Positions 6,801 to 64,000 of a stretch of DNA of 64,000 bases are shown one piece after another. Source of the DNA: Rhodotorula mucilaginosa (taxonomy: Eukaryota > Basidiomycota > Microbotryomycetes > Sporidiobolales > Sporidiobolaceae); NCBI GenBank assembly GCA_034406715.1, contig CP137871.1, positions 186,001 to 250,000 of the forward strand, written 5' to 3'. Within the stretch, counting starts at the first letter, position 1. Each line of letters opens with the position of its first letter. A program made the position numbers and the translations under genes. The notes below the pieces were generated by a model. That model saw only the letters and a program-made list of their open reading frames with translations, was not told the origin of the DNA and did not search any database.

Positions 6801-6823
6801 TTCGGCTTGTCCGCGGAGCTCGA
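6801..6823 (+). promoter_or_regulatory. Island-family upstream motif, copy 1
   Basis: TTCGGCTTGTCCGCGGAGCT lies about 140-165 nt before the inferred start of the first island gene. The CGGCTTGTCC core with an adjoining CCGCGG recurs upstream of the other family genes in the same orientation relative to transcription. A promoter role is an inference. Confidence 0.45.
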
Positions 6824-6964
6824 GGTCGTCGGGTCCGCCTCCTTCCCGCTCCCTCACCCTTGCCGTCGCGCCTTTCCTCCTGCTCGCCTCGAGCTTTCTC
6901 GTACCTACCTTTTCCAGTCACTGCCGCGACACAACCCGACCGAACCCGTCCCCTTTTGCCACGC

Positions 6965-7812
6965 ATGGACGCCGATGCCTACCGCGCCTACATAGCCAAC
7001 TCTTGAGCTCCTCGACACCCTCTTCAAAGCTGCCATGGATGACTGGGCGGGGCGGAGGAATGCCACCCGGCCGCAATCAAAGCAACTCGAGAAGTATTGG
7101 GATAGCACAATCAACCTCTTCTGGCAAGAAGAGCCCGGGCCCGACCGCAAGGTCACGGATACGGTCCACCACGAGGAAGAAGTGGCCACTTCGTGGCTCA
7201 GACAGCTGGGGACCGTGGCGACGTGCAACTTGCCCCGTGCCTCAAAACCAGCAAAACAACATTGGCACACAGAGTCATATGGTTAATGGCGATTTTTTCA
7301 GGCCTTTGTCTGGACGCGGTATGAGAAGCTGCGCGACATGAAAACAGCGGGCGAAATCAAGCAGGCCCGCCGCTTCGTGGTACGTTTTGACATGCAAAGC
7401 GGTCCTACAGAAGGCTCACCAAGCTCGCCACTTGCAGCTGTACGCCACCCCGTTGCAAATCTTCCTACGCTTGGTCAATCTTTCCCCCTTCGCACTTACG
7501 GCCAGCTCTACGTACAATCTCCTAATGAATTTCCGCTTGTTCCTTCTTCCCTTGAATCTAAATACATAGCGCAGCCACTTTCCCGCATTGCCCTGGCCAG
7601 AGACGCTCCAGGAGCAGCTACAATCAGAGCAACCACCACAATCAGAGCAAACTGCACCTGTTCACCCAGAGCATAGCGAGGATGATAATCAACCCGACCA
7701 CCGGGGACCGATGGACCTCTCAGCAATCCTAAATCACAGTCTCGGGCCTTATCACCCGATCTCTCGTCGCGCGGCGGGGGCGTGTCGTGCGACGAATTTG
7801 CGCAGTTTCTGA
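6965..7812 (+). pseudogene. Island-family gene 1, short single-module form; probably frameshifted
   Basis: This is a paralogue of the gene at 8469. Both code a Leu-rich helical module (L-E-L-L-D-T-L-F-K-A-A here) with W-L-x-Q-L and E-K-L motifs, then a 36-nt microexon at 7438-7473 (LYATPLQIFLRL). A last exon contains PWPETL and ends P-I-S-R-R-A-A-G. The ATG at 6965 aligns with the start of the second copy, but its frame closes after 13 codons (MDADAYRAYIANS). The homologous frame resumes around 7003, so a small indel separates start and body. A shorter product could begin at the in-frame ATG at 7035. Function is unknown. The last exon carries an extra Gln/Glu/Pro-rich stretch before the terminal motif. 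Confidence 0.5.
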
Positions 7813-8324
7813 CGGACAGAATTCGATCCGAGGTAGTGCTCCGTGGGTAGGGACGATCTGCCACCAGATCCAGAAGGAATATGACGTGCGAACCGTGCCA
7901 GCCGGTGTGCGGCGGAACAAGCAATTACGGCTGCTTGACAGGCTTCAATCGAAAAGCGGAGAGGCATAGACAAGGCAGGAAGCAACGCGCAAACTGTCGT
8001 CGCGTCCTTTCGCTTCCCGACATCGGCGTGGCGCCAAAGTCCCGTGACTGCACTGCCTTGAGTGTCGACGCGCTATGCAAACATGATTGGGAGCTATGTA
8101 CTCCGAAACCGGCCGCTTCTGGAGTGCTTTGTACGTGCTGGTCTCGTGATGATTCTGAGAAGGTTTGAACCGCTGAGCGTTGGTACCGAACATGCTGGAC
8201 TTTTAGCATGTACGTCGTACGATCGTCAGTCGGAAGACAAGGTTCGGACCCCGTAGATGCGCATGTGGAAGAGTAAGGCCCGGATCGACTCGGGGACGCG
8301 GTGGCGCACGACCCTCCTCGAACA
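7813..8324. other. Spacer between the two plus-strand island genes
   Basis: About 510 bases. I see no supported gene. Short open frames here do not match the family and lack splice context. Confidence 0.4.
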
Positions 8325-8347
8325 TTCGGGTTGTCCGCGGAGCTCGA
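8325..8347 (+). promoter_or_regulatory. Island-family upstream motif, copy 2
   Basis: TTCGGGTTGTCCGCGGAGCT matches the copy at 6801 at all but one position and lies about 120-145 nt upstream of the ATG at 8469. The surrounding sequence is otherwise different, which makes the match stand out. Confidence 0.5.
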
Positions 8348-8468
8348 AAGCGCTCGCTTTCTTCGCTTGCATCGATTGCATCTTCCTTCCTTCTCCAAAC
8401 TTGTGGGGCCTGTCTCAGCCTCTTGCCGTCGTCGCCCACTACGTCACCCACAACGGTTGACGAATACC

Positions 8469-9187
8469 ATGTCAACCGGTGCCTCCCGCAACAACGCCAG
8501 CGAGTCTGACCTCGAAGCTCTCGTACAAGCTGCCATAGCAGCTAGGAGCACCGTAAAGAAACTCAAGAGAGCACCGGGGTCAGCTCATGTCGAAGCGTCC
8601 TTGCGTGCCATAGCCTGTAGTCATTCGCATCCGTCCAACGCGCGCAAGCCCGATCCGGTACTCAACGACGCGATCAAAACGGAGAAAGAGATAGTCCTTC
8701 CGTGGCTCGCCCAGCTTAAAGATATCGCGGGACAGACCCAAGACCCAAAGGAGCAGGCCAGGATTTATGAGTATTGGCGGATCTATGCAGTGTTCGCTGA
8801 ACTCCGGTGCGAAAAACTGTGCGAGATGCCACTCGCCGAGGCACAACAGTTCATGGTGCGGCATTGACTGTCCAGCTTCGCCGAAACCTACTCAAAAGGA
8901 CTGACTAGGTTGACGTTATACAGCGCTACGCGACGCCGACGCGGATCTTCGAGACTTTGGTGAGCTTGTCTCTGCGTGCCCGTCCCAGCTTTTCGTCAAG
9001 ACCTTCCTGTTCTCTCCTCACCGCTCCCGCTGCCCTCACGCAGGAAAAACACTGCCCCGGCATGCCCTGGCCGGCAACACTCCGCCGGAGCGATGTACGC
9101 CACCTCCTCAACAATCTCGGTGCTTTCCAGCCAATCTCTCGCCGCGCCGCAGGAACGCCTAAAAGGACAAAGCCGCCTGTCTTCTGA
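8469..9187 (+). CDS. Island-family gene 2, short single-module form; function unknown
   Basis: Three exons are supported. Exon 1 starts at the ATG at 8469 (MSTGASRNNASESD) and codes about 130 residues of predicted helix, with L-E-A-L-V-Q-A-A and W-L-A-Q-L-K. It ends A-E-A-Q-Q-F-M at a GTGCGG donor. Exon 2 is the 36-nt microexon at 8924-8959 (RYATPTRIFETL), between a ttatacag acceptor and a gtgagc donor. Exon 3 codes CPGMPWPATL and ends with PISRRAAG and K-P-P-V-F-stop. The same order occurs in the neighbour at 6965. The microexon and terminal motif link it to the larger minus-strand family genes. No signal peptide or membrane segment is seen. Function is not known; helical scaffold character is an inference. 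Confidence 0.6.
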
Positions 9188-9510
9188 AGCACACTTTAGA
9201 GATGCAGTCAAGTAGGAATGTTGATCGGTACCGATCTTCGTGAGCTTCGCCTGCCCAAGCCACCGGTTGGATCAATCACCTTGGACCCGACCAGCCACAC
9301 CTTCGCTTTCCCTCTTCCTCTGGGCTCTTCTCCTTCCGAGAGATCCGTTGCCATATACCTTTCAATCGACCTTGGATGTTTGCTCCCAGTTGTCTTAGTA
9401 GCGCTCCTCTTTCTTTGATCTTCTGCTGAGCAAGACCTCGTCCCTCCGATCGAAGATTCAGACTTTATTTACGAAAGAGATGAGGCGGCTGTGACAGCGA
9501 CGCCGGTTCT
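9188..9510. other. Convergent spacer after island 1
   Basis: About 320 bases between the 3' ends of the second island gene and the next minus-strand gene. Nothing recognisable. Confidence 0.4.
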
Positions 9511-11382: not shown

Positions 11383-11736
11383 TGTCAAGACACGAGATCA
11401 GTCCAGCTCCGAGATCCACCGACTACCTCGACTGGGCTCACGAGCAGCGTCGAGCGGCATCCACGAGAGCGTTGAGCGCGCGGGTGACTGCGCAGGAGCC
11501 GTGTCGAGATGCGAGGAGGGCGACAGAGGCGACGGCGATTTCGGAGGAGGCGGTGCAAGATCAGCGAGCGAGACATGGCGCGTGAAAGAGGACTGCGAAC
11601 GCGACTCGGGGGCGACAAGTTAAAGCGACTCAAAGAGTGTCTGTGCGTGTTCGTGATTGCAAGGGGTAGTGGTCTAGGATCATACACTTCGGTTCCGAGT
11701 TCAAGGCACCCTGCCTTTTATACGCGGACAATCGAC

Positions 11737-15398: not shown

Positions 15399-15690
15399 CC
15401 CTAGCTTGCTGGCCGTGTGCCCGAGCGCGTTAGAGTGAGGAAAGAGTCGCTATAGCCAGCGCTGCACCGCCTCACTCTTGCTGACCTCTCGTTCTGCTTC
15501 AGCGCGTGCACAGCTTCACTCTCTCTTCCTCCTTATACACACACACACAGTAAGTACCGTGTTAGACATACAGTCGCAGTGCAGCATAGACTGACAGCTT
15601 GCCCCGATCTTCTGCCCGCTCGCCCACTCCGTCTACCCCGGAAACGCAACCTCGCCACTCATCTTCCATCACCCTCTCGAAGACCTCAAC
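15399..15690. promoter_or_regulatory. Bidirectional promoter region PMT4 / ZPR1
   Basis: The two start codons are 292 nt apart on opposite strands, so this segment must hold both promoters. It has pyrimidine-rich tracts on the ZPR1 side and a short (AC)n run at about 15536-15549. No individual factor site is claimed. Confidence 0.5.
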
Positions 15691-19870: not shown

Positions 19871-21587
19871 CTAAAGAGAATTGAAAGGGCGTGCCCTGCG
19901 AGACCATGCATCCGGATGGACACCGTACACAGTGAGAGCAATTCTGCGGCCAATGGAGGGCCGGTGCCCCAACGCATGCGGATGGCTGTTCAATAGCTCC
20001 CACTCATCCAGTAGATGGCCTGTCTGATTTGGTGGTTCTCCTTCGTCACCCTCCGAGCTCATGGCTTGCTCTTCCTGGCTTGTAGGAGCCGGACGGGTAA
20101 AAGAAGCGGAGCGCAAAGGGGAAGATGGTAAAGAGGAGCAAGGTGAATGGGCCAAAGGCAATGGGGAGGAAGGTGAAGGGGAGGAGGACAAAGGGCGGGC
20201 AGCAGGCTGCATACACAACTTCACTCATCAGACTGTTTCAAGATGGTAAGGTTCTCTCAAAGTGTGGGAAGGAGACTCACCTGGGTGTGTGCAACGACTT
20301 GCTTCACCTGTCTTGTCAGAGCATCCTGGACCGTCAGGAAACCGAAGAAGAAGAAGAAGAAGAAGAAAAAGTCAGTTACAGCCGTTCCAGTCAAGGTTAA
20401 TTGTAGAACATGACAAACCACCTCGTGCTCTATCCTTTCTGGCTTCCACTCACACTGGGAACAGAGTGGGCAAGGCAGGAATCAGCCATGTGATCAATCT
20501 GGTCACAACAGCAAGAGGACAACTTACAAGGCCATTCGCTGCAGCAGCAATCCCGTCATTGCGGGACACTGTTCTGGTATGGTCCATGATTTTATCCAAC
20601 CACCAGTTCCACGCAATGGCTTTGGCATCTGCAAGCTTCTTATACTTCTTTGGTGTGAGCTGCGACCTGCATGCGGTTGTCCAGGCGCAAAGCTTCCGGA
20701 CCAAGTTCTGCCCCGGGGCTTTGGCTTCAATCTCCTGTTTAGCCTCTTTAGCTCTCAGGGTTTTCTGCCTGCTTCTGCCCCTGCGTTTATAGCCCAACAC
20801 ACTGAGGAAAGTCCAGTCTGTCAGCTTCTTCCGCCACGTGGTGTAATCTAAGCGTGCCAGCTTCTTCTGGAGCACAGTGTATGGCTCTGCGATTGTGTCC
20901 AAATTGGAGGAGCCTATGATTTCTTCAGCGTATTGCGTGAAAATCTGCGCAGCCTCTTTGAAATGCTCAGCGTGTGGCCAGTTCTGCGGGCATCCAAGGC
21001 GCACGCAGAACTTGCTCGGGTCAGTTGGGTACGGAACAGACTTTGACTGTCCGCCATCTACTGTGACAGACATACATGCTTCACAGCTGCATGCTCAAAA
21101 GAGCATCGTTTCTGCAGCCAATGATTTCCCTGTCAGTCATCTTCAGCAAGGCAAGTCTGGCAAGAGCAAGCACAGGCTTGAGGCATTGCCACCGGTTCGT
21201 TCTATGCCAGCTCACCAAGGTTTCTGCAACCGCTCGCAACTTGTCTGAAGGATCCTGCTGCCCCTCCAGTACCCGAGTAATAGCCTCGCATAGTTGACGC
21301 AAATCCTGGCCGAAGGCATCTCGAGTGTCCCGGTATGCCGACCAGTTGCGGTACTTGTGGGTGTAGTCAAAGAACGGCTCTGCCCACACCTCCACCAGAG
21401 CTTCTCCAAGCATTGCCAGGTGCCCATTAGGTCCATAGACCCCTCCAAGGAACTTTGAGAGTAGGCAAAGCAGGGCGTGCAACGTAGAGGAAGTTGTTTC
21501 CGTGGGATTTTCCCGGCGGGCATGGGGTCGCCTCGACCTGAATTGACCCGGAGTTGGAGAAGCTGGAGACAGTGTGCGCTGTTCCAT
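19871..21587 (-). CDS. Island-family gene A; function unknown
   Basis: A two-module family member starting at the ATG at 21587 (MEQRTLSPASPTPGQ). Module 1 has L-G-G-V-Y-G and A-L-V-E-V-W-A-E-P-F and ends D-K-L-R-A-V-A-E-T-L at a GTGAGC donor. Module 2 begins at a W-P-H-A segment, has Y-T-T-W-R-K-K-L-T and A-K-A-I-A-W-N-W-W, and ends in A-A-A-N-G-L at a GTAAGT donor. The 36-nt microexon at 20419-20454 codes CEWKPERIEHEV. A small exon (D-A-L-T-R-Q-V-K-Q-V-V) and a Pro/Ser-rich tail follow. The end is GHRPSIGRRIALTVYG, then D-A-W-S-R-R-A-R. The promoter motif lies about 100 nt upstream. No known domain or signal peptide is visible. Confidence 0.6.
20344..20367 (+). repeat. (GAA)8 microsatellite inside an intron of island-family gene A
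   Basis: Eight GAA units on the plus strand read as TTC on the gene strand. They form the pyrimidine-rich tract of the intron downstream of the microexon. Repeat-length change could affect splicing, but this is speculation. Confidence 0.85.
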
Positions 21588-21947
21588 TGCGCTGCAAGCC
21601 CAAGGAGTATATGAGCGAGAGAGAGAGAGTTCAGCTCGCGCGCCCCAGACTTGTGTGCCTCACACGTCGCACCTTCGCTGCTCCGCGGACAAGCCGCAGA
21701 CCATTTAACTTCAGCCTTTACCCTCTGAGTAGCTCGAGGTTGTGTAGAGTTGGCAAGGCTGCGTTTTTGGTTAGTGTGCTTGCCGCCGCAGAGCGTACGC
21801 AGCTTGCGCTAGGATGTGCGTTGTGCGGTCAGATCATCAGATGGGATCTTGAGAGGTTGTCGCTCAATGAGAATCCGTGCATATCACAGGCTTGCCAACC
21901 CGTGTACAGCAGTATCGCTGCATTGCTGGCTGATCCCAAGAAGGCAC
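21588..21947. other. Spacer: island-2 promoter and MGS1 3' flank
   Basis: About 360 bases. It contains the upstream motif at 21679-21700 and a (GA)n-like run near 21615-21630. No coding exon is supported. Confidence 0.4.
21679..21700 (-). promoter_or_regulatory. Island-family upstream motif, gene A
   Basis: On the gene strand this reads CTGCGGCTTGTCCGCGGAGC, about 95-115 nt before the ATG at 21587. It shares a 13-nt core with the plus-strand copy at 6801. Confidence 0.5.
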
Positions 21948-30025: not shown

Positions 30026-30323
30026 GTGCTCCGGTGTGCGTATAAGTCACTGTGTATCAGGGTCTGAGACCACCTCGTTCGCACAGGAGGAGAAGGTCTT
30101 TAAGAAGCAATGGACAAGCCGCGGAGCTCGGAGGGAGCTGCTTCCCGTCGAAGGCCTCGTGATCAAGCGAGTTCTCTGTCTCTTTATATGCGATGCGCTT
30201 CCCAAAAGGGTCCATAGCCGGCATGGAGGCTGTCAAAATACATGATTACAGGGGGTTTACGCGCGCATGAGCGCGAAAAGGAAATAGGATCGAACCCAGA
30301 GCAATTGCTCAGGACAGAACAGA
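30026..30323. other. Spacer: J-protein promoter and PHF5A 3' flank
   Basis: About 300 bases. It contains a copy of the island-family motif at 30111-30131. No coding exon is supported. Confidence 0.4.
30111..30131 (-). promoter_or_regulatory. Island-family-like upstream motif at the J-protein gene
   Basis: On the J-gene strand this reads GAGCTCCGCGGCTTGTCCAT, about 85-105 nt before the ATG at 30025. It is the only good copy found upstream of a gene outside the island family. Chance is possible for a GC-rich word, but position, strand and length match the others. Confidence 0.4.
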
Positions 30324-31473: not shown

Positions 31474-33703
31474 TCAAGCTTGGGAACCAAAGACTATACT
31501 TTTTGCCCATGTTTTGTCCTGCTTGTTGCTAAGCTTGTCACAGCGCGCGCTCCCTGCTTTGCTCAGCGCTTTGGCGCTTGCACTCGTTGCTCTCCAACAC
31601 TGCTTTGCAACTCCGGACTTCAACAGGGGGCTAACCAGTATAGACCATCTCAAAGTGCAAATCAACCTGAAAGAACATGTAATGCAGGCCTCAACACGCT
31701 CTGCTGCCCAGCTGTCTGGCTCGAAACCGTAAACCTTCTCGGCAATGCGGCGGGCCATCCGGGGCTTGTAGCCAAGCGATTGGAGGGGGTCATAATGCAG
31801 GACTTGCAGTTCACCCTGTGTGTTCCACGAATCAGCCAGGTAGGTCCAGAAAAGAGACACGTGATGAACACGGATCAGTGTCAGAATACGGAAAGGGCGG
31901 AACAGATTACAGGCAGTGCAGTTTTTGTGTGCTGCTTAATTGCAGTGATCTGCAGAGCTAAGTATCAGCGGGCTAAACTTCGTCTCCATGCAAGACCAAT
32001 TTGACATACGAGTGCTTGTGCTAGACGGAGAGTGGGCCACGGAGGGCAAGGAGCTCCGTTGTTGAGGACGGTCTCTGCCGCCCCCGCTCTGAACGTTTCT
32101 TCACGTGAGTTGTACATCCATTGGAGCCATTCAGTTCCCACAGTGGTCAGGTAGCCAGTTTCTGCAAGAGTCTGAAAATGGAATGCCCACTCAAAGTAGC
32201 ATTTTTTGAGGTCGGACTAGAGCCCGAGCTGGACCTCTTCAAGCCGGTGTTTCAAGGCCTCAGAGTCGAAGTGCTCAGGCTCGGCAACAGACGGGCCAAG
32301 TGGGTACACAAGAAGGGTCAGCCAAAGCTGGCTCAGCAGCGTGTTGAGCATGCTATCCATGGCAAACGAATCTCCCTGAAGGAAGCAATCGGGTCAGTTC
32401 ACAATTAGCTATGTAAAATGTTACAGGTTTTCTTGACCAAGAAGAAGGTAAGGCCAACGTTTTGCTTCTGTCACAGCCCGACGGCATCACGGAGGTTCAA
32501 AAACCCATCAAAACAAGCCTACCGCAATGTGAGAATGTTTTCTTGCCAAATCTGAGACAACCTCCCAGCTCAGCGCACTCAGGCAGGCCTGCATTGCTGC
32601 ATCACACCGACACCTGGAGGTTGTTTGACCGTGTCAAATCTGTGAGCAAGCTGTGGGACAGGGTGCAAGCATGTTTCAGTGCTCACTGTAAAACTGTCAA
32701 GAGGTGAGAAAGGAACTTGCCACAAATTCTGCAGCTACACAAATGCGTTGCTGCTCTGCTGCCCCAGCATCTTGAGCATCCAAGGATGGCACCGATTTCC
32801 GGACGCTCTGCGCCGCAGCCCACATGTCCATGATCCACCGATCCCAGGCCTCGGCCTGGCAATAACTGAGAGTATGATAATGTGCTTCTGTGAGCTGTCT
32901 GAGAAGGAGGCAATACCAGTCCTGTAGGTCCCTGTAAAGGTCCTGTCTGCACCCTCTGGCTCCGGCTTGTCGAAGGGTTGTCTGGGTTTCCATGATATTG
33001 CTCTTGAGGTTTTTCTTCAACTCGAAGCCCAAGACACTGGTGACAGCCAGGCAGATTACCTTGTGGCGCCAGGTTACGTACGCAATAGGCTTGGGTATCG
33101 CATTGGCTGGTACGCGGACAAGCGTGGGATCTGAGGATTTTTCAAGCTCTTCCGCAAAGTGAATGCTAGCGTTGGCAGCTTTGTCCACCCAGTCAGTGTA
33201 TTGCCAGGCCTTTATCTGTGATGTGTCAGCACTTCTTCACCTCAATGAGATATAGGGAAAGTACGTGCAAGTCTGCTGGCAAAGGCTTTGAAGTTCCTGT
33301 CCTTCAGTAATCGCGCTCGGATCAACGGCGGCCCTGAGTCTGAAACAGACCAGTGAAGACGCACCAGGAGACCAGCAAGCTCCTTCAGTTTGACTGTATT
33401 AGACTTTGCTGTTCCTCTGATCTTGACAGATTGCCACAAAAGTAACCGCAACTCGAGTTCAAAGTCCGGCCGTGCATCTTTGAACCAACACACAATTCGG
33501 TGTCTGCTGACGTAGGAGAGAAGTGGGCGCGCCCACAAGTTCAATACCGCCTCAGCGCACTCTTGAAGGCGGGACTTGTGTGCGGTCGGGGCGTTGTATT
33601 CGGCGCTTGGCTCGATGAGGCTTCCCAACTGCGCAACGACCGTGAGCAGCATCCGTCGATCTTGCACAGAAGGCTTGTCAAGGTCAAGACGCCCGCCGGG
33701 CAT
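31474..33703 (-). CDS. Island-family gene B, two modules plus third helical domain; function unknown
   Basis: The first in-frame ATG is at 33703 (MPGGRLDLDKPSVQ). Module 1 has V-V-A-Q-L-G-S-L-I-E-P and A-V-L-N-L-W-A-R-P-L and ends L-K-E-L-A-G-L-L at GTGCGT. Module 2 (after an A-W-Q-Y segment) has Y-V-T-W-R-H-K and C-Q-A-E-A-W-D-R-W and ends A-A-E-F-V. The microexon-equivalent block at 32615-32650 reads LAHRFDTVKQPP and probably continues into a longer exon. A third domain near 32120-32360 contains L-L-S-Q-L-W-L-T-L-L-V-Y-P-L-G-P and an H-F-D...A-L-K motif, shared with gene C. The C-terminal signature is YKPRMARRIAEKVYGF followed by D-S-W. The reading then continues to a stop at 31474, longer than in the relatives. 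Exon junctions between 31.9 and 32.6 kb are uncertain. Confidence 0.5.
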
Positions 33704-34403
33704 GACTGCTCGTGACCTAGGATACGATGTGGTGGAGGACCAGTTGAAGGGCTGTTCAAGATAAGCAAGACGCCTATGCCGGAGTGGGGATCCAAACCCT
33801 CCAGCGCTCGGAGTGCCGCGGAGGAACGCCCGGACACTCCGCGGAGACGCGCTTGCATCGCCTTTCCACACAATGAAGTATGCCCCGAGAGCTATACCAG
33901 CGCCACACAAAATTGTCCACCAACTTCCGTTCCCAAACTTTTGAACAACAACGGCTTCTTGAGAAGCTACGGCCAAGTCCGAGGGAGAAGTTCCACCAAC
34001 ACCACCTAAGTCGGGCAACGGCGTCTTGAGGCAGTGACTGGCACACGGCGTAGGGTATCATCTGCAATCGGAAGTAGTGATAGTGACGTTTGAAAAGAGA
34101 GAGAGAGGAAGAGACTTAGATGGGAAAGCAATGACGACCGAGGCGAAGGTTGGGACACCCACCAGGGTATCAGCCCAGTAAACTGGCTCCTTGTGTTAGC
34201 CTGGCCCCACAGGTATTGTAAACTGTTGACACTTCTGTGCACTCTTGTCCAGAAAGAAGCGTCCAAAAAAACAGACTGAAGGGAAATCACAAAGGCAGGG
34301 AAAGAGGAAAAACAACAAACACAAAAGAAAAAAAAACAGCATGGATACAAAAGAACGCAAAGCTGAGAGAAATACAGAGGGAGGGAGAGCAAATGGTACA
34401 TGC
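33704..34403. other. Spacer between island-family genes B and C
   Basis: About 700 bases, including the promoter motif for gene B at 33811-33846, purine/pyrimidine-rich runs (34085-34110) and an A-rich tract at about 34300-34340. No gene outside the family is seen. Confidence 0.4.
33811..33846 (-). promoter_or_regulatory. Island-family upstream motif, gene B (double copy)
   Basis: The gene strand carries two CCGCGG boxes separated by about 20 nt, with the second followed by CACTCCGAG. The second half is almost identical to the motif upstream of gene C, while the neighbouring sequences have diverged. It lies about 110-145 nt before the ATG at 33703. Confidence 0.45.
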
Positions 34404-36272
34404 TCAAGTATGGCGTTCCTCCCACAGGTGGGCTTCAATCCCGTAGACCTTCCTTGCGATGCGGGAAGCGATTCTTGGCTTGTTTCCGAGCGACTGCACT
34501 GGGCCTGCAGTCCAGTGCTGGTGGACGGATGATGACTGACCCTGCTGCTGCAAGGTCGCAATCTGGTCTGCCTGAACACCAGGAAGGTTTGATTTAGAAT
34601 CACCGACGGCGCAGATGTGAGGAATGCTGAGAGAACGCTGAGAGGACTTGGAAAGCTTACAAGGAAATTGACTGCATCTGTGGTGTGCCATACTTTCTGT
34701 GAAGTCCCATTGCCAGGGCTTGTCACTTGCATCATTTTATGGATGTGTTGGCGTAAAGTCCCCATCCATCCCTTCCAGGAGTTGGCTTCACCTGCTAGGG
34801 TACCAGCTTCCTCGGCCCGCTCAAAATGGCCCGCAAGGTGAAAGTATTGTTGCTCAAGCTGGATGTAGAGACCATCCTGGAATATACCAAGAGCACATTT
34901 CAGGGCATCTGGGTCAAAATGGCTGCAAGTTGGAAGGTCAGGGCCAAGAGGGGCAACCACGACAGTCAACCAAAGCTGGTGAAGCAGCTGGTTGAGCACA
35001 GTGTGCATATCAAGTCTGATTGCCTGATGGTGAGAGCGCGTCAGTAATCTACCCTGATGACTTGGGTGTGTGTGACAAAGGCACAGTTAGAGAATGGAAA
35101 TTCCGTCTCACTGCAAAACCACTCTGTTCTCTTTGCAGCTTTGCAACCTCCTCCAAAGTAAAAGCTTCTTGGCAGACAACTTTTGCAGCCACAGACCAAA
35201 CAGCCGGAGGTTTTTGCGCTGTGTCAAACTTTTGGGCAAGCTAGAGGAGAATTCGGAGGTGAATTTTCGCACCGTGGACAACAACCTGAAGTGAGCGGAA
35301 AACTCACCACAAAGTTTGCAGCAACGCGAGTACATTGCCCCTCTGATGCAGCAGCAGATCCTTGAGGCAAAGCAGGCACTGCCTTGCGGATGCGCAAAAC
35401 TGCGTCCCACATGTTTGTGATCCACAGGTTCCATGCACAGGCTTTATGCTGGCTGAGAGCTTTGTAAAAACCACAAGAGAATGCCCTTCTCCAGCTGCGC
35501 TGCCACTCTTCCATAGCCTTATACAGGTCGCGTCTTGCTGCGTCAAGACGTGGCCGGTTGGTATCGGAATCGACATTAAGGTAGGTATTGTACTTGGAGC
35601 CTAAAACACTGGTAATAGCTAGGAGGTGAAGCTTCCTGCACCAAAAACGGTAAGTAATAGGCTTGGGCACTGTGCCAGGTGGTGTGGGGACATGTGTCGG
35701 ATGGTTGGCCTGCAGCAACTGGTGCGCAAAAAGACTGCTGGCTTGAACACCTTCAGCTTCGTCTTCGCCTCCTCTTTGCTTCCAGGGCTGTGATTGTACT
35801 TTGTCAGCACTTTGACATGAGAGTGAAACAAGAAATAGATACGCGCAAGCCTGTGGGCAATGGTCATGAAATTCCTGTGGATCTGTATGTTCTTGGATCA
35901 ATCTGCCAAGGCTACAGAGAATAAGAAAGACAAGGGAGGACGCACCAGGAGCTGTGCAAGTTGCTTCAACCTCTCTGAAGGTAGCTCGTTGCTACCCCAA
36001 ATCTGGGCAGATTGCCACAAGAGCAATTGCAGCTCAAGCTCAAAGTACCGGTGCGCCTCTTGAAACCATTTCTGGTCGCTATTTTGGCTGATGAAGTGGT
36101 CAAAAGGCTGTGCCCATAAGTACACCAACGCTGCAGCCCGATCCTCCAGGTCGGGGTCTGTGACACCGGGACCGTTGCTGTCGAGTCCTCCTGCTGGCTC
36201 TACGACGCTTTGCAGCTGTGTCACAACCGCAGCCACTGCTTGGCGCGCTTGCACACAAGCCTCTGCGGCCAT
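34404..36272 (-). CDS. Island-family gene C, two modules plus third helical domain; function unknown
   Basis: The ATG at 36272 (MAAEACVQARQAVAAVV) opens module 1, with V-V-T-Q-L-Q-S-V-V-E-P, A-L-V-Y-L-W-A-Q-P-F and an end at L-K-Q-L-A-Q-L-L before GTGCGT. Module 2 has Y-R-F-W-C-R-K-L and K-A-C-A-W-N-L-W and ends A-A-N-F-V at a GTGAGT donor. The microexon-equivalent block at 35205-35240 is LAQKFDTAQKPP, matching gene B. It runs on into a helical stretch (A-A-K-V-V-C-Q-E-A-F). The third domain near 34740-35005 has L-L-H-Q-L-W-L-T-V-V-V-A-P-L-G-P and H-F-D-P-D-A-L-K. A Gln/Ser-rich segment leads to NKPRIASRIARKVYGI and the end H-L-W-E-E-R-H-T at 34404. It is the closest relative of gene B within the window. 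Confidence 0.55.
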
Positions 36273-36375: not shown

Positions 36376-36418
36376 GGAGTGCCGCGGAGGAACGTCCGGA
36401 CTTCCCGCGGACAGGCCC
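36376..36418 (-). promoter_or_regulatory. Island-family upstream motif, gene C (double copy)
   Basis: On the gene strand GGCCTGTCCGCGG is followed by GTTCCTCCGCGGCACTCCGA, about 105-145 nt before the ATG at 36272. The arrangement is the same as in gene B. Confidence 0.45.
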
Positions 36419-37758: not shown

Positions 37759-40713
37759 CTACAGAACAAAAGACCAAGCCCTCTGGGACCACAGGTCCGG
37801 ATCAATGCCATACACCTTGTGAGCAATCCTCCGGGCAATGCGAGGCTGGTGACTCATTGCTTGGAAGTGCTCAAATCCGTCGAAAGGTGGACCTGGCTCC
37901 TCAGGATACCCAATGTTCCCTGTGAAAGGGTTGGGTCCTGCTGCAATTGGAATTTGATTGTGGTTGTAGTGCAGAGAGGGGCCATCGTAGTGAGTGGGAG
38001 GGTTGCCATAGGCAAGAGGGTCATAGGCAAGAGGATCATTGGCACCATAGGTGAAATGGTCACCATGGGGGAAAAGTGGGTCCTGGGGGGAGCTGATTGG
38101 TCCGGCAACATGGTTCATCCCTGATGACCCGCCATGGGCTCCGTGAGGGCCTGCAGCAGGCAGAGAGAAAGGAACAGGGTTCTGCAGAACAGCAAGACAC
38201 ATGAGGCTCCAGTGCGGTGTTTCAAGGAGATCATGAGAAACTTACCTTTGCCATGACCAGGTCCACCTGCGCATTGAGTATGTGCTGTCGAAATGCTATT
38301 TTAGAACTCCGTGTTGATAATTAGAGAGTAGAAGTGCGTTCTGTGCCTTTTAGACTCACCACCTCATTCTCAACTATTCCATTGGTCCATGCAAGCTGTT
38401 GCCAGTAAGGTCCAAGAGGAATCAGTCACAATTGCCTACAGCATGATGAGGTGAAAGCAGCGCACGATGTTGTTTGCTGCAGCAACAGTCCCCTCCTGTC
38501 TGGCCACAGTCTGGACATGATCCATGAGCTTGTCCAGCCACAGATTCCAGGCACAAGCCTCTGCATATGGGAGGCCCTTGTAGGCATCCTCTGGAAGCTG
38601 CGCTAGGCCGTCCTTTTTCCACTGCTCAAGCTGGTGCAACAACCATGTGCCCTTTGCTTTGATTGTCTTCTTTGCCTCCGGAATGGTTGGGGTGTGTCTG
38701 CCCCGTGCGCAGCCAACTGGACCGAGGAACGTGCACTCATTGACCTTCCTCACCCAAAGGCCATGGGGTCTGCGTATCAGCTTCTCCTTGATGACACTGC
38801 AAGGCTCAGCAACCCAAGCGAGATCAGTAGTATTCTCAATCTCATGGGCAAAGCTTGTGAAGGCTTCCGCCTCAGCCTCCTCTTCCTCAGGCTTTGGCCA
38901 ATCCTGCAGCAAGTCTCGCTGGCATCAGTTGGGTAGAGAGAGTCTGCCCTCTGCTCTGTCCAGATCAATGGGATGCACACGTACATACTTCTTTGCCATA
39001 GCCTGAAAGGAGTAGTGACACTGTTGCAATCCGCTCTTTTGAGAAGTCAGCTTTGCGTGCTTGTCAAAGGAACAGTCTGAGTATCAGCTTGCCAGGGTAT
39101 GCGCAGCCTGTCGCAACTTCTCCGGAGGAGCTGGACCACGCTCCAACTGATGCTTCATGTACTGGCAAAGCTGTCGAAGCTCTGTACCAAATGCATGGTG
39201 GTTGTTTCGATACCATGCCCTAGCCTGATATTTGCGGTCATGGTTCTTGAACGGCTTGGCCCAGACCTGGACCAGTGCTTCACCAAGTGTAGCAAGGTGC
39301 GCATTTAGTCCGTAAACGCCTCCAAGGTCATCTGCAAGTAGGGAAAGCAGAGTCTCCGCAGTGGAGGGTATCAACCCAGTGCTGACCTGACAGCGACGAT
39401 ATTCTACTTTTCGCCGCCTCCTTGAGCCCTGAGGCAGAAGTGTCTGAGGCAGGCTGCTCCTTGTATCTTGGGGAGGCTGCTGTGTCGGCTGCTAAGGATA
39501 GTATTTAGTCACTCATTCTTTGGCTGTGACAGGCTTTTACACACAAAGTCTGGAAGCACAAGCTGTGTGAGCCTTGCCTGCAGGAGAAGGAACTCAGCTT
39601 TGGTCATGCCAAGCAGAAAGAAAGGGACACGCGCTTACAATCTCCCTCTCGATGATTTCAGGTTTCTGGTCAAGCTACGGAGCAGATCACGTAAGCCAGC
39701 ATTCCCTCTCATCTGTTTGTCAGGCAGCAACTTACAATGAGTTTGGCTGCTCGCCTGATTCGTTCCTTGTCGGTTCCCTCCACCATGCGCGCATCTCTGA
39801 CCTTTTCCTGTAGCTCTGCAAGCCACTCCACCCATGCATTCGCCTCGGCATCAGACAGAGTTGAGTACCGACGGCCAGAAAGCTGCTCCTCGCGCTCCTT
39901 GGCCCACTGTTGCAGCTGGGTCCAGAGCTTGTCTGTGGCAGGCGCGGCGGCGTTCACATCGAGCTCTGCCTGGGGTAGGGCCAGAGTGCGGTGCTCGGCA
40001 GAGCGAGGCCACGCTGCACCGCGTACGTCACACTCAGTGAGCATCTGCAGCTTCTGCTTCCATTGGTAGTATGTGAAGCGCGCCTGGAGGGGCTTGAACT
40101 CCGGAACTTGAATCCGCTGGAGATCGCCTGTCTCCGTGATGCCGGCTGCAAACACTGCAGCTTGCTCTGCCGCCTGCTGTACCTGCTCATCAGGAGGCCA
40201 TCTCTGAGACAAAACGTATCAGTCAGCACACAAGCTGCAGAGAGCACTTGGGCTTCTCTTGCTGCAAGTTACCAGCTGGGGCGCAATCGCTGAGAAAGAA
40301 TACCTTGTTCCCTGCAGGTCACCGAGATTCAGCCAGTGGACAACAGAGCAAGACAAAGAAGCTTGACATACCAGCAACTCTGCTGTAGCTTGCAGTACAC
40401 GGTTATGGGTTGGCAAAGACGCCGCATTTTTTACGGCCGTGAACAGTTCTTTGAGAAGGGTGTCGAGCGCATCGAATCCTTTGACATGAGCAGACCGGTG
40501 AAGGTAGTTAAATATCGAAAAAGGCGTCGACCACAGGACCAGTAGCGCTTCAGCCAGGTTCTGTATGTGCGACCGCGCCCCCTCAGGCCCCTGCTCAGGC
40601 GCTCGCAGACGCGCGGCGAGGAGGATATGCAGATGGCGGACTGTGACCGTCAGCGGGTTCTTGCGGCGTCGAAGCTGTTTGCGCTCGGTTTGATGCGCTG
40701 TCTCCGGATCCAT
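37759..40713 (-). CDS. Island-family gene E-D, probably a four-module tandem protein; function unknown
   Basis: The ATG at 40713 (MDPETAHQTERKQLRRRK) begins unit E. Its first module has A-L-L-V-L-W-S-T-P-F, ending A-T-A-E-L-L at GTATGT. Its second has Y-Q-W-K-Q-K-L and A-N-A-W-V-E-W-L, ending R-A-A-K-L-I at GTAAGT. Microexon 39639-39674 is LDQKPEIIEREI. Phase-0 exons then lead through a Gln/Pro/Arg-rich segment into unit D, which has no ATG of its own. D's first module has L-G-G-V-Y-G and A-L-V-Q-V-W-A-K-P-F, ending at a GC donor. Its second has E-A-C-A-W-N-L-W-L, followed by microexon 38360-38395 (LAWTNGIVENEV). An Asn/Pro/Gly/His-rich tail ends HQPRIARRIAHKVYG and D-L-W. Fusion of E and D is inferred; two genes, one broken, is the alternative. 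Confidence 0.5.
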
Positions 40714-41189
40714 TGGGTTACAGGTGCAAGAGGCGCAGGAAAGAAAGGGGCGAAAGCCGGAACTGACAGTTAGTACTGACCGTTCTCGGCCGGACAAGCC
40801 GCGGACCTGCGTCCAGAGCACCGCCACACGCGGGCTTAGACCGCGACAAAGTGTCGCGCGCTCGCCTCCCCAGTCAAGGTACCCTGAAAAGCTGGCTCGC
40901 TGCACAAGGCTCTGCTGTTTCAAGTTGGGAAGGTCATGCTTGCGAGAGCGCGAGAGAGCGCTGCGAGGGAGCCGCGGTTACTACACCTGAGGGGAGGCGC
41001 CAGTCTGCACTTGACTCCGCTTTGCCGCCACACGGAACGCGGAGCGAATGGCGCAATCTCTCTCTGCGTCTCTTGCACGTTTCTCTACGCACACGTCCGC
41101 AAACAGCAGGATCACCTGAACGGACTCCATACGCTGCTTGACTTGCCCACTCCTCCGGAATAGACAGGTCTAGCGCTCTTCCCAACACA
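40714..41189. promoter_or_regulatory. Divergent promoter region: island gene E-D / fusion gene
   Basis: 476 nt between two start codons on opposite strands. The E-side motif lies at 40791-40806. No obvious TATA box. The boundary between AT-richer island and GC-rich core lies here. Confidence 0.45.
40791..40806 (-). promoter_or_regulatory. Island-family upstream motif, gene E-D
   Basis: The gene strand reads GTCCGCGGCTTGTCCGGCC about 78-95 nt upstream of the ATG at 40713. There is no equivalent upstream of unit D, which supports E-D being one transcription unit. Confidence 0.5.
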
Positions 41190-58567: not shown

Positions 58568-60840
58568 CTACAACAGTGACAAGCGAGCCCTGCGGTTCCA
58601 CACCTCTGGATCTTGGATGCCATAGACTTTGCGAGCAATCCGGCGCGCAATGCGTGGTCCGTGACCCACCGAGTGCGGATCCCCGTATCCAGTCCTTGGG
58701 TCCCATGTCGCTATTGGTCCCTCTTGATTGAAGGCTTGATTTGCTGCTGCTGAATGCGCTTCATTCTGCCACACATTGCCTATGTTCTGCCAGTTCTGGT
58801 CGCCTGCATTTGTTTCCTCCATGGGATACATGGGAAGCTGACAAGCTCGAGAAAGTCCGCCAAATCTCGCTATGGGGCAGACACAGACACTGTGAACAAA
58901 CTGCACTTGGGCAGGAGAAATCGAGATCGAGGAAATTTGAGCCCACCTGAATCTTCAACGGGGAAGTACTGGTTATTGTCTGGAAGGATGTAGGGAATGC
59001 CACCAGATGATGGCAAGTGGTCACCTTGATGGTGCGGAGGCTCCCTGCCGTGACCTTGAGGCTCCTTGGAAAAAAATCCTGCTGGAGAGAACGGAGGCAC
59101 GATCAGCCAAGCCTACGAAGATGGTCGAAAATGGAAGCGCACCAGAATAGTTGGGGCCAGTCAAGTGGGAAAGCTGGTGTTCAGACTGATGAGCCGGCGC
59201 GTGATGGAGGGGAAAGAAAGAAGTGTGATCCGGGGTTTCGAATGGGCGAAACGGAACTGGCTCATTCGGGAAGTGAAAGTTCTGTTAACAATGACATACT
59301 TGCAGGTCAGACACACAGAAACATGCCCAACAGGAAAGTATGGACATACATAAACCGCATTGTGCAGCTGTTGATGCCGATCTGTTGATGGGTCAAGCAG
59401 CGGGTTCGGCTGCTGCATCAATGGCAAAGTAAAGAGAGCCGCTGGCTCAGGAAGGTCACCGGCACAAGGATTATCATGGTGACCATTCCGAGGAGAAACA
59501 GGTGTTCCCAAAGTTGTTGCAGGATCTTGTGGACTTGCTGAGCAAGCTTGCCGCTGTGTCTTGATATCAGTGGCTATCAGCGTCAATCACTCCTGTCAAA
59601 GGATGTGCTGCAGCAAGGCAAACAGGCAACGTACATCGTTTGCCTCGATGCGCCTCTGCAAGGTGGCCTGTTTCGTGAATACGGAGGTGCAGTAGTGGTC
59701 AGTCTTCCTCATCAGCCTCTGCAAGGGCGCAAAAACGACAGTCAGTCATACTTACCACTTCTTGGTCAATTGTTCGGGTGTCTTTGGCAAGCTGAAAGGA
59801 GTTCGTCCAAATTTTAGCCATCCAATGAAATAGCTTGCTTCCTCGGAGCAGGAAGAGGCTCACAATGACTTTAGCAGCCTCCCTTATTCCCTCCTGTAGG
59901 TCAACGCGGAGTCTCCACAAGCGTGAGGTCTTGTAGACTTCTTCCTGAAGCTTTGCCACCCACTCGCGCCATGCCTCGGCTTTGCTGTAGGGCAAGGCAA
60001 TGTAATCCTTCTGCTGGAGGTGTTTTCCAACCGCCTTCTTCCACCTGAATAGATCATCTGCAAGTCCTTTCTGTGCTGCGTTGATGACAAGTTTATGTGT
60101 CTTCCAGCTTGTTCCCCGCCGGTTGTCGCGCGTTTCGCCACAAACGCTGACAGCAATGAGGACCAAAAGCATTTGCTGCCAAGTTTGGTAGGCTATGCGG
60201 TTGTCGGCTTTGGCAGGTGCAGATGGGACAGTGACATCTTCCACTGGTCCACTGTGTAGGAGCTGGGTGATGAACTGCTCAACGGGCTTGGCAGCTCGGA
60301 ACTGCTCATCCGATGGCGACCAGCGCTGCGCGAGCGGGTATCAGATGGATCTTCAAGTCAGAGGGAAGCTAGCTGCAAGTAGAACATACGAAGTGATTGG
60401 CCAAGTCTCCAAAAGAGAACTTGTTGCTCTTCTGCAGTCAACCGAAAGTCAGTCTACGCATGAGGAAGCGAGAAGACCTTCTGAAAGCCCACAAGTTCAA
60501 GTGCGACCTGTCTCAAACGCTCAGAGGCTGGAATCTGCATGTTGCTAAGGATTGAAGTGATAAGCTCCTTTAGATGCTCCAACACAACATTGAAGGCGGC
60601 CCGAGTGGTCTTGTAGTGTTTTCGCGGGCAAGGATTGGTGACAAACAGTGTAAATGGCGCTGCCCAAAGACTGATCAGCCTCTGCCCTACGGCGGGGAGG
60701 TGATCATCTTGGTCTTCCGCGTTATAAAGCGAGGTGGACATAAGCGAAGTCATCGCCTCAACGGTGTTTGCGAGCTTCACCCGCTCCCCGTCTCGCTCTC
60801 CTTCTCGGCGAGTCTGAGAACTCGGAGTTGGACTGGACAT
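58568..60840 (-). CDS. Island-family gene F, two modules with Asn/Pro/Gln-rich tail; function unknown
   Basis: The ATG at 60840 gives MSSPTPSSQTRREGERDGER. Module 1 has R-L-I-S-L-W-A-A-P-F-T-L-F and ends E-R-L-R-Q-V-A-L-E-L at GTGGGC. Module 2 starts R-W-S-P-S-D-E-Q-F, has Y-Q-T-W-Q-Q-M-L, V-S-V-C-G and Y-S-K-A-E-A-W-R-E-W, and ends E-G-I-R-E-A-A-K-V-I at GTGAGC. Microexon 59756-59791 codes LAKDTRTIDQEV, flanked by a ctttcag acceptor and a gtaagt donor. Several exons then code a disordered tail rich in Pro, Asn, Gln, His and Gly. The end is GHGPRIARRIARKVYG, then D-P-E-V-W-N-R-R-A-R-L-S-L-L. It is among the most complete representatives and a good reference for defining the family. Confidence 0.65.
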
Positions 60841-61921
60841 TCTGGCTGCTTGTAGAGGAGGAGGCGTCAAGATGCCAAAGTAGTGGTCGGAAACAGCACA
60901 GAGAACCGCAGCGGCTGCGCTGATGACCACAATGACGGACAAGCCGCGGAGGTGCGAGCGCGGTCGCGTGACGCTTAAAGCTTGGCGCCACTTCGTCCGC
61001 GTTTGCTGTCGCGGTCCGGTGCCTGCGTACAATGTGGGTACTGCAGAACCTTGTAACTTGGACACGGAAATTAAATTGATCAAGCCGCGCAGGCGCAAGC
61101 TCGGTGGAGTGATGCGCCTAGCGCGCAGAGCGTCCTGTCTCGAAGGGGAGATGCGCATACTTACATACTGTAGCATAGCATTATTCTTGCCGCAAGTTTC
61201 TGGGTGTTCAGGACCACCAAAGGACGCTCTGAACCCAGAGAACCCGAATTGCGATGAGTTACCAACGCATTTAGTGCACAAAAATAGCTGCAACCAGTCT
61301 ACTGGTCACCCATATGCTGTGCAGACAAGCTGTCTGGTTGGCCAAGATGAGGGAGGGTAGGAACATGCAAGGAGGTGTACGGTATTCCTCCCTTTGCTTC
61401 GCTTGTTGCCTTCATCTCCCCAGTCTTGCTTCCTTTGTTTCAACATTGTTTACACGCATTTCTTGGAACACTGTCTATCTTATTACTGCATCAACCTGCT
61501 GATAGATGCCTCAGAACCTCATTTTTGGGCTAGACTAGACAAAGGGCAGTGTTTTGAGATGTTGGTCGATCTTCTCGGCCGTGTTTTGGTTGATGGGCAC
61601 TTCTTGATTCTTGACTGTCCCCGCTCTATTGTATTTCTCAAGACCTAAGTATGACTTGCTCTTCATTGACCTTTGCTGGTTAACAGCGGATGAGATAGAG
61701 CACGCAGTAGACATTGTTCAAGTTCGTTCACAAGAGACTGGTTCAGAATGCCCTTTCCCCAGTCTGCTTTCAGGCAGCTGGTTTAGTGCACACTACACAC
61801 TGTATACGTTGCACTTGATCATCCTGTTTTGCTTTTCACACTGAAAGAAAGGAAGTCTCGAGTAGGAAGGAAGTCCAAACTTGAAATTTTCGGAACTTCC
61901 AAATCATGACAAGGTGAGCTT
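60841..61921. other. Spacer between island-family genes F and G
   Basis: About 1.1 kb. The F upstream motif is at 60935-60952. The segment 61.2-61.9 kb is AT-richer and has only short open frames. No gene is supported. Confidence 0.4.
60935..60952 (-). promoter_or_regulatory. Island-family upstream motif, gene F
   Basis: The gene strand reads CCTCCGCGGCTTGTCCGTC, about 95-112 nt before the ATG at 60840. The central 14 nt, CCGCGGCTTGTCCG, are identical to the gene E-D copy. Confidence 0.5.
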
Positions 61922-64000
61922 CTACAACTTTAACTCACGCACTCTGCGGCTGCCAAGCCAAGCCCCTGGCCCATTAGGGCCATAAGGACCATAGACCCCA
62001 TGTGCAGTCTGAGGCACAACACGGGCACCATCACTGACTGCCTGGGGATATTGACTCGAAGGCGCCGGATCGAAGGGACTCTGGGTCGTTTGCAGAGCGG
62101 GATGGACATAGGAGGGGCTGCTCATGCTTGAGGTATACATACGCCCTGAATTGTCCACCTGCGTCATTGGGACTTGAGGCACTGCAGGAGAACCTGCGGC
62201 AGTTGAAGGAGAAGTCATCAACTAGAGGTTGAAAGCAGAGGAAAACCGACAGGAGCTCACCATGGTACCCCCCGTGAGGATTGTGTAGCATAGGATCACC
62301 AAAATTTGAGCGGGGAAAGCCTCCCAATTGTCCAGTCATGGCATCTGGTTCTCGCAAGAAAGAACCGTCATGATAGCCCAGAGGACGCCAATCTTCAGCT
62401 GTAGTAGGTAGATAGTGCTCATTCAAAAGGAAAGGATCCTGTATGTAGTGTTGCAAAGATTCCCTCAGCTCAAGAGAGGCTGTGTACACAGGCAGACTGA
62501 TGGAGGAGACAAGACTGACCAGAGCGAGAGCTTCATGGTCACCCACCGGCAGAGCCCCTCCCGGTTGCTGAGCAAACTGGTTGGTTGCTGTTGCTGGTGG
62601 AAAGGGGACCAACTGGTTGCCTTGAGGGGGAAACGGCCTGAAAGAGTAGCTCGGCTGCAGGTGGTAGGGCAAGTCTGGATACTCAGGATTTCCATAGCCA
62701 AGGGCAGGAGCACCTGCACTGAACGGGGCAAGAGTGCAGAGGTTTGGCTGATGCCAAGGGTGCAGGTACTGCTGACCACGTGAACTTGAAGCCACAGAGG
62801 GGTCTGCCGGACCAGCAACCTGTTGGAATGCCTCAGCATCCTTGCCACTGAAGAACAAGAGCACGAAATCACTGCAAAGTGCTTGATCACAAACTGCCAC
62901 ACACCTTCTCTAGCTGGTGGTGCTCTTTTTGTTGCTCCTTCTCCAAGAGCAACTGTGTTTCCAAGTCCGCCTATTACCTCCGTGACAAGGATTCCCGGAA
63001 GGCCGGTCCAGCAGTGAGTGATGATCCTGGTGACACCACAGCAGATTCAGCAGACTCACCACCTCCTTTTTGATGTGCTCTGGGGTCTCAGCAAGCTGCA
63101 CTGGCCGAGTCAGCCAGATGCAGTATCCTCTGAGAAAATGACCAAAGAAGACCTCCAATGATTTTGGCAGCTTGCCTGATACCCTCATGGATGCCACTCT
63201 GGTTTGCACAAGAGCAAGACACCTCACAAACGCGGTCGCAAAGCCTCCTGGCCCACATGTACCATGCCTCAGCTTTGCTGTACGCCATGTTGTTGTACTG
63301 CTCCACTGTCAGTAGCTTTTTGCAGGACTCCCTCCACAACAGGAGCTCATCCGCAAGTCCAGGTTGCGCCTCATTGATGAGGTCTTTGTTTGTTGCCAAG
63401 GTGAAGGTGCTGGAACCGCGGTTCTTGCCGCAGACACTCAGAGTTATGACAGTGATGAGCATGTTCCTCCAACTGGCATATTTTTTGCGTCCATCAGGCT
63501 TGACGGCAGTGGGTGGCAGAGGGACAAGCTTGGGGTCTGAGGCATCTATGATGGCCTGGGCAAATTTCACAGCTTCGTGCCCTTGTTCCGTCTGCTTTTG
63601 TCTTGGTTGCCAGCCCTGCATTGTAGGACCAGTAAGCCATACATAGTCCAGCGGAAGTTGGGTGTTCAGAACATACAAACTGTTCTGCGATGTTGCAAAA
63701 TGAATGTAATTTCTTTGCACAGATTGTGCTGGTCAGCGCTGCGTGCTCGTGAATTTAAACAAGGAAGAGATAGAATGACCCTTACAAGCACCCCCGCAGC
63801 CTCTTTTAGACGCCGCGAGGCCGAGACCTCGTTCTGCCGAAGAATCACTGCGACGGTGCCCTTCACGTCCGCAAGCTTTTGCTTGAAAGCGCTGCGATTC
63901 GCATCATACATTTCGCGGGATCCGGGCAGCATCATCTGGACAAACGCGGTGAAGGGCGCCGCCCACAGCCTGATTAGCGCTTTACCGCGGACGGAAAGCC
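61922..64000 (-). CDS. Island-family gene G, 5' end outside the window; function unknown
   Basis: The gene enters from the right edge within module 1 (A-L-I-R-L-W-A-A-P-F-T-A-F), which ends R-L-K-E-A-A-G-V-L at GTAAGG. Module 2 begins G-W-Q-P-R-Q-K-Q, has Y-A-S-W-R-N-M-L, V-C-G-K-N and Y-S-K-A-E-A-W-Y-M-W, and ends E-G-I-R-Q-A-A-K-I-I. Microexon 63060-63095 is LAETPEHIKKEV. A Gln/Glu/Lys-rich helix (L-L-L-E-K-E-Q-Q-K-E-H-H-Q) is followed by a long tail of Pro, Gln, Tyr, Gly and Asn to the stop at 61922. The terminal signature is weaker than in its relatives (H-G-V-Y-G...A-W-L-G-S-R-R-V-R). It is the nearest paralogue of gene F by module 2 and microexon. Confidence 0.6.

What the first reader, a model, noticed from the sequence alone, without database searches (positions are those of the whole stretch)
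6801..64000. Undescribed, fast-diverging gene family in four islands between housekeeping genes
Nine modules in eight genes (6965+, 8469+, 21587-, 33703-, 36272-, 40713- with two units, 60840-, right edge-) share an ordered set of landmarks despite low overall identity. These are A-L-x-x-L-W-A-x-P-F in module 1, A-E-A-W-x-x-W in module 2, a 12-residue microexon block and a C-terminal P-R-I-A-R-R-I-A-x-K-V-Y-G signature. I know of no family with this combination. The islands are visibly less GC-rich than the core genes they interrupt. Expansion, orientation bias (all minus outside the first island) and divergence suggest rapid birth and death, as in recognition, allorecognition or selfish gene families; that role is speculation.
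Basis: partly seen in the sequence, partly recalled or inferred. Interest (0 to 1): 0.9.

Follow-up and report, generated by a model that had tools for sequence, protein, structure and literature searches.

The report
Fast-evolving orphan gene family, shared promoter
This stretch of a fungal genome holds a real, apparently undescribed family of fast-changing genes that keep a similar exon layout, the same short promoter signal and usually the same protein tail; what the proteins do is still unknown.

Summary
The family is real and larger than reported. Seven of the nine claimed modules, all on the minus strand, are homologous. Five window genes end in the P-R-I-A-R-R-I-A-type tail. The two plus-strand genes of island 1 are not shown to belong, and no tail was found for the right-edge gene.

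Genome-wide I count 19 genes of unequal support: 13 within 225 kb of contig C8, six on C2, C5 and C6; one more is a relic. Of 32 complete module matches, 30 have the splice GT where the layout predicts it. Module 3 is a relative of module 2.

New here: a 15-bp element, TCCGCGGCTTGTCCG, lies upstream of 15 of 15 core genes with 3 mismatches or fewer (random stretches 5.3%). Its 14-base core occurs 68 times in the genome, 0 times reversed.

Pairs of copies are mosaics with a homogenised 3' part, and some copies are broken. Likeliest reading: a lineage-restricted birth-and-death family of helical adaptor proteins with a constant tail and common regulation. Function is inferred, not shown.

The parts
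60936..60950 (-). promoter element TCCGCGGCTTGTCCG of the 60840 gene, 95 bp before the modelled ATG
60493..60840 (-). 60840 gene, exon 1 (module 1)
60390..60431 (-). 60840 gene, 42-nt microexon
59864..60325 (-). 60840 gene, exon 3 (module 2); predicted all-helical
59756..59791 (-). 60840 gene, 12-residue microexon LAKDTRTIDQEV (by eye; the gene model merged it with exon 3)
58571..58954 (-). 60840 gene, frame with the C-terminal signature
63157..63591 (-). right-edge gene, module 2 (exon 1 runs past the window; no C-terminal signature found)
40791..40805 (-). promoter element of the 40713 gene, exact
40372..40713 (-). 40713 gene, first module 1
39736..40203 (-). 40713 gene, first module 2
39639..39674 (-). 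40713 gene, 12-residue microexon LDQKPEIIEREI
39084..39331 (-). 40713 gene, second module 1
38466..38903 (-). 40713 gene, second module 2
37762..37911 (-). 40713 gene, C-terminal signature
36397..36411 (-). promoter element of the 36272 gene, 3 mismatches
35946..36272 (-). 36272 gene, exon 1 (module 1)
35308..35781 (-). 36272 gene, module 2
34661..35023 (-). 36272 gene, module 3
34407..34556 (-). 36272 gene, C-terminal signature
33831..33845 (-). promoter element of the 33703 gene, 2 mismatches
33351..33703 (-). 33703 gene, exon 1 (module 1)
32721..33209 (-). 33703 gene, module 2
31968..32393 (-). 33703 gene, module 3, interrupted by an in-frame stop
31690..31839 (-). 33703 gene, C-terminal signature
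21686..21700 (-). promoter element of the 21587 gene, 1 mismatch
21216..21587 (-).
21076..21111 (-). 21587 gene, 36-nt microexon
20528..20986 (-). 21587 gene, module 2
20419..20454 (-). 21587 gene, 12-residue microexon CEWKPERIEHEV
19874..20023 (-). 21587 gene, C-terminal signature (P-S-I-G-R-R-I-A)
8469..9187 (+). island-1 gene 8469+ (three exons in one model): membership not shown
6799..7809 (+). island-1 frame 6965+ with degraded element at 6799-6813: broken up by stops, membership not shown

Best explanation
A lineage-restricted, birth-and-death superfamily of intracellular proteins. Each protein has one or more all-helical modules (one long exon each) joined by short linkers from microexons, then a Pro/Gln/His-rich tail, and in 17 of 19 genes a constant basic end (LGxxPRIxRRxAxxxYxxDxxxW, probably two short helices). 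Shown here: homology of the modules, a recurrent exon layout, a shared upstream element, mosaic copies with homogenised 3' parts, and broken copies. Inferred: the constant end docks onto one common partner (a nuclear protein or DNA), the fast-diverging modules give each copy a different binding partner, and the 15-bp element, which contains CGG-N5-CCG as a Zn2Cys6 site would (recalled), switches the copies on together.
For: Own-genome exon searches: 13 places at E<=1e-3; 8 and 13 at E<=1, of which 6 and 9 at E<=1e-3; 15 for the C-terminus at E<=10, of which 12 at E<1e-3. 30 of 32 complete module matches have GT at, or within one codon of, the predicted phase-0 splice point. The layout 312-354 / 36 / 354-459 / 36 nt recurs in three remote genes, C5:1273k, C5:1299k and C8:265k. 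Modules 2 and 3 match at E 1.2e-6. Element upstream of 15 of 15 core genes at <=3 mismatches, 14 in the same orientation, against 212 of 4000 random 250-bp stretches; 68 exact 14-mers genome-wide, reversed control 0. Pair C8:70k/77k: dN 0.068, dS 0.135 over 249 codons. AlphaFold model of module 2: pLDDT 82.6, pTM 0.68, all helix.
Against: No transcript, localisation or binding evidence. The dN/dS of 0.50 is one pair and was not tested for significance; introns 1 and 2 of that pair are 76-81% identical, but introns further 3' are 98-99% identical, more than the exons, so exon-intron contrast supports constraint only in the 5' half. The C-terminal model is weak (pLDDT 62, pTM 0.29). The element also precedes genes outside the family. 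Module 1 is not shown to be homologous to modules 2 or 3. Not every model shows the layout: C6:1303k shows no microexon and several models are plainly imperfect. The protein database is largely made of prokaryote-style gene calls, so wider distribution could be missed.
Confidence: 0.42

Rival explanations
1. Amplified subunit of one nuclear complex, like the TLO (Med2) family of Candida albicans: the constant end plugs into the complex and the rest varies.
For: A constant end with a variable remainder, many copies, truncated copies, as TLO is described in PMC9713401 (passages). Basic C-terminal end.
Against: No Med2 or other significant Pfam match. The 12 other module-2 sequences aligned are only 20-34% identical to the 60840 copy, against about 97% within and 82% between clades (nucleotides) given for TLO.
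Confidence: 0.2
2. Selfish poison-antidote drivers, like the wtf genes of fission yeasts.
For: Multi-exon, fast-diverging, mosaic copies and a shared cis motif, as the FLEX motif in wtf genes (PMC9562144, passages).
Against: No sign of two transcripts was looked for or seen; the element lies upstream of exon 1, not in intron 1. A sexual cycle is unproven. wtf proteins are membrane proteins (recalled); module 2 here looks soluble and helical.
Confidence: 0.12
3. Allorecognition or mating-type related recognition genes.
For: Fast divergence between paralogues; public relatives about 84% alike as well as 97-99% alike.
Against: Not linked to STE3 (C12) or the homeodomain pair (C7). No significant Pfam domain. 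Variation between strains at fixed loci was not tested.
Confidence: 0.12
4. A decaying family without present function, its modules drifting.
For: One copy interrupted by a dispersed solo-LTR-like repeat, one with an in-frame stop, a relic on C1. In the 70k/77k pair the 3' introns are as conserved as or more conserved than the exons.
Against: dN/dS 0.50 in that pair (not tested for significance). Splice points and the element are kept across copies that are 20-34% identical in module 2.
Confidence: 0.13

Closest known systems
TLO gene family (Med2 paralogues) of Candida albicans
   Same: Multicopy, one constant end and a variable remainder, truncated copies, an LTR insertion in one architectural group (PMC9713401 passages)
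   Different: There the constant part is an N-terminal Med2 domain and copies are about 82-97% alike in nucleotides. Here the constant part is C-terminal, no Med2 match was found, and module 2 is 20-34% identical to the 60840 copy
wtf meiotic driver family of Schizosaccharomyces
   Same: Multi-exon, fast-evolving copies with a shared cis motif (PMC9562144 passages)
   Different: The element lies upstream of exon 1, not in intron 1; module 2 is predicted helical; drive is untested
Pleiotropic drug response element / Zn2Cys6 sites of yeasts (recalled, from no call)
   Same: The 15-bp element contains TCCGCGG and CGG-N5-CCG
   Different: Longer and nearly invariant; the factor that binds it is unknown

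Membership tests
One homologous family (the finding's claim) | Significant profile similarity between copies | tested here: met
   Met for the minus-strand units; not met for island 1
One homologous family (the finding's claim) | Conserved exon layout and intron phase | tested here: met
   30 of 32 complete module matches with GT at or within one codon of the splice point; layout; not seen in the C6:1303k model
One homologous family (the finding's claim) | C-terminal signature in every member | tested here: not met
   Five window genes have it; not found in the right-edge gene; island-1 ends weak or at noise
Any known Pfam family | Match above the curated cut-off | tested here: not met
   Best E 0.029; where a cut-off was printed the match was below it (one search prints none)
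Any family with a solved structure | Sequence-profile match in the PDB | tested here: not met
   Module 1 best E 0.067, module 2 none at E<=5, module 3 best E 0.71, C-terminal frames best E 1.7
Any family with a solved structure | Fold similarity | not testable with these tools
TLO / Med2 | Med2 domain | tested here: not met
   No such Pfam match
wtf drivers | Alternative poison and antidote transcripts; transmission bias | not testable with these tools
   No transcripts or crosses
Mating-type genes | Homeodomain, or linkage to HD or STE3 | tested here: not met
   Homeodomain models hit C1, C4, C7, C8:959k, C9, C18; STE3 on C12; none in the C8:70-295k stretch

The most novel reading that the evidence does not exclude
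A hypervariable intracellular recognition repertoire of a yeast: promoter element and 3' end are held constant by conversion while the helical modules between them are diversified and duplicated. Two pairs show it. 60840 and C8:259k are 82% identical in DNA over 825 bp of 3' part and flank and 97.5% over 40 bp around the element, yet their module 2 is 17% identical (23 of 139 residues). In C8:70k/77k, introns 1-2 are 76-81% and the region 300 bp upstream 58% identical, while later introns are 98-99% identical.
Probability: 0.17. Interest if true: 0.85.

Novelty: new variant of a known kind. Interest (0 to 1): 0.55.

Why it matters
A family with no significant Pfam or PDB sequence relative, a recurrent exon layout, a fixed promoter element and usually a fixed protein end, but modules only 20-34% identical inside one genome, is a compact test case for how new gene families arise and diversify. 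The shared element makes the biology testable at once: whatever factor and condition act through it should turn on many copies together.

Tried and rejected
Linkage to mating-type loci: rejected; STE3 is on C12, the homeodomain pair on C7. Island 1 as members: not shown. Caleosin match of one module: E 0.066, below cut-off, one of 13 copies. The element as private to the family: rejected. Exon-intron contrast as a general proof of constraint: rejected. A module-1 comparison of 60840 with C8:259k was run in a wrong frame and is not used; the same slip put the C8:259k start 2 bp off, so its distance of 81 bp is really 83. One of two 3' comparisons (76%) used loosely matched borders and is replaced. 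Literature searches (listings only; 8 of 8, 15 of 1,480, 10 of 29, 4 of 4 and 10 of 3,175 papers seen) showed no description of the family or the element; most subscription journals are not held. Nearness to contig ends was looked at, not tested. The organism was not identified.
Full report
WHERE. The window is C8:186001-250000 of an unnamed 20.35-Mb genome in 19 contigs. The assignment to Microbotryomycetes was not tested. A STE3 receptor on C12 and two homeodomain frames on opposite strands about 1.1 kb apart on C7 fit a basidiomycete.

THE COPIES. One module-2 exon found 13 places in its own genome at E<=1e-3, itself included. Two further exon queries found 8 and 13 at E<=1, of which 6 and 9 at E<=1e-3. 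The last 51 residues of the 60840 gene found 15 at E<=10, 12 of them at E<1e-3. Profiles run on the loci then held found module 2 in 15 frames at E<1e-9, 13 of them training sequences and two new (C8:293k, E 4.8e-17; C8:259k, E 3e-10), and module 1 in 15 frames at E<1e-10, two of them new. Genes counted: C8 at about 70, 77, 206, 218, 221, 225, 246, 249, 259, 265, 276, 290 and 293 kb (13; the 225-kb one has two module units); C2:1490k; C6:1303k and 1371k; C5:1273k, 1299k and 1300k. That is 19, of unequal support. C8:265k rests on the element and the exon layout. C6:1303k and C5:1300k rest on the C-terminus. C5:1299k was met through the element and has the C-terminus and the layout; C5:1273k resembles it (E 8.8e-17), with layout and a C-terminus read by eye. 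A module-1 fragment (E 0.011) beside a C-terminal fragment on C1:1811.7-1812.1k is a relic.

ANATOMY. In the better models of close copies exon 1 has 333-348 nt, the first microexon 39-42 nt (30 in the 40713 model), the module-2 exon 441-462 nt, and the second microexon 36 nt, twelve residues that often end IxxEV (for 60840 the second microexon is by eye). Other models deviate: 21587 starts late (198 nt), C6:1371k has its module-2 exon split, the right-edge and 36272 models are imperfect, and C6:1303k shows no microexon. Three remote genes, C5:1273k, C5:1299k and C8:265k, give 312-354 / 36 / 354-459 / 36 nt in one phase, although the module-2 profile does not reach the C5:1299k and C8:265k frames at E<=5. 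Of 32 module matches reaching the profile's end, 30 have GT at or within one codon of the predicted point (13 of 14 module 1, 12 of 13 module 2, 5 of 5 module 3); of the two others one has GC (five matches that stop short were left out). Module 3 occurs in six copies (36272, 33703, C2, C8:276k, 290k, 293k) and aligns with module 2 at E 1.2e-6 over 107 columns; module 1 aligns with neither (E 0.095 and 0.46). AlphaFold gives module 2 seven helices, pLDDT 82.6, pTM 0.68, from 13 sequences, and the C-terminus two short helices at low confidence (pLDDT 62).

C-TERMINAL SIGNATURE. A profile made only from sequences outside the window (two C5 genes, C6:1303k, two public proteins) hits five window frames at E 3.9e-10 to 1.6e-6; the next is E 0.13. 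By profile the signature is in 16 of the 19 genes (15, C5:1299k), by eye in C5:1273k; it was not found in the right-edge gene, and the end of C8:265k is not held. Island-1 ends are at noise; the end of 6965+ has E 0.015 with another profile.

PROMOTER ELEMENT. Upstream of the starts lies TCCGCGGCTTGTCCG. In the 15 core genes it has 0 (8 genes), 1 (3), 2 (2) or 3 (1) mismatches in the same orientation, and is exact in reverse orientation in C6:1303k. Distances are 77-151 bp. Of the three C5 genes one is exact (found through it), one has 3 mismatches and one has none in the 180 bp held. Control: 212 of 4000 random 250-bp stretches outside the islands reach <=3 mismatches. In the window there are 15 such matches against 3.9 expected. 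The 14-mer CCGCGGCTTGTCCG occurs 68 times exactly in the genome, its reversal 0 times; 12 of the 68 precede family genes as counted here, two of these genes having been met through the element. Of the 30 sites read (of 68), 28 are outside the family; their downstream models look, by eye and without a family search, like a mixture of ordinary genes, membrane proteins and other orphan groups.

EVOLUTION. Inverted pair C8:70k/77k: 249 codons, dN 0.068, dS 0.135, ratio 0.50, not tested for significance; by exon 0.62, 0.19 (13 codons) and 0.46. Introns 1 and 2 are 76% and 81% identical and 300 bp upstream 58%, but four later introns are 98-99% identical, more than the exons: the 3' part looks recently homogenised. 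The 70k copy carries 245 bp inside exon 3 that recur at 14 other places, 11 of them nearly full length at 81-98%; ends TGTTGG...CCAACA and a 5-bp direct repeat, by eye, fit a solo LTR. The 33703 copy has an in-frame stop in module 3. The 60840 and C8:259k genes are 82% identical over 825 bp of 3' part and flank and 97.5% over 40 bp around the element, while module 2 is 17% identical (23 of 139). The 12 other sequences of the module-2 alignment are 20-34% identical to the 60840 copy.

DISTRIBUTION. Three searches of 5.8 billion proteins returned 1 (E<=1e-3; 8000 candidates scored), 6 (E<=0.01) and 8 (E<=1) relatives. Seven were placed: P0001-P0005 are 89-99% and P0006-P0007 84% identical to copies of this genome. 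The other eight were only aligned, 35-92% identical to the 60840 end; the least alike could be other paralogues or another species. The database leans on prokaryote-style gene calls, so this shows presence in close kin, not absence elsewhere. Pfam gave nothing significant, the PDB nothing significant.

JUDGEMENT. A lineage-restricted, birth-and-death gene family is a known kind; this one, with a fixed element and end around modules that change fast and with homogenised 3' parts, appears undescribed within the searches named. Its role is open; the adaptor reading is an inference from anatomy.

Noticed in passing
genome-wide, e.g. window 40791-40805 and 60936-60950: 14-mer CCGCGGCTTGTCCG: 68 exact copies in the genome against 0 for the reversed pattern; upstream of family genes, other orphan groups and some ordinary-looking genes.
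   Followed up: partly
C12:76485-88808 (L084 holds the first unit): Six element sites exactly 2,462 bp apart: a tandem array.
   Followed up: partly
C4:517375-526772 (L074-L076): Three element sites 4,692 bp apart, before near-identical predicted membrane proteins.
   Followed up: no
C3:1058-1076k (L068-L071) and C2:1321k (L063, L064): Two further small orphan gene groups behind the same element; the C2 pair looks by eye faintly like the family's modules, without profile support.
   Followed up: partly
L052:2524-2768 (C8:71023-71267): 245-bp dispersed repeat, ends TGTTGG/CCAACA, inside exon 3 of the 70k copy: looks like a solo LTR; three copies on C11 lie 6,439 bp apart.
   Followed up: partly
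C8:958378 and C8:959724: An element site 1.3 kb before a homeodomain frame on the same strand.
   Followed up: no
C7:869274- and C7:870442+: Two homeodomain frames on opposite strands about 1.1 kb apart, like a mating-type HD locus.
   Followed up: no
window 30111-30125, minus: A one-mismatch copy of the element outside the islands.
   Followed up: no
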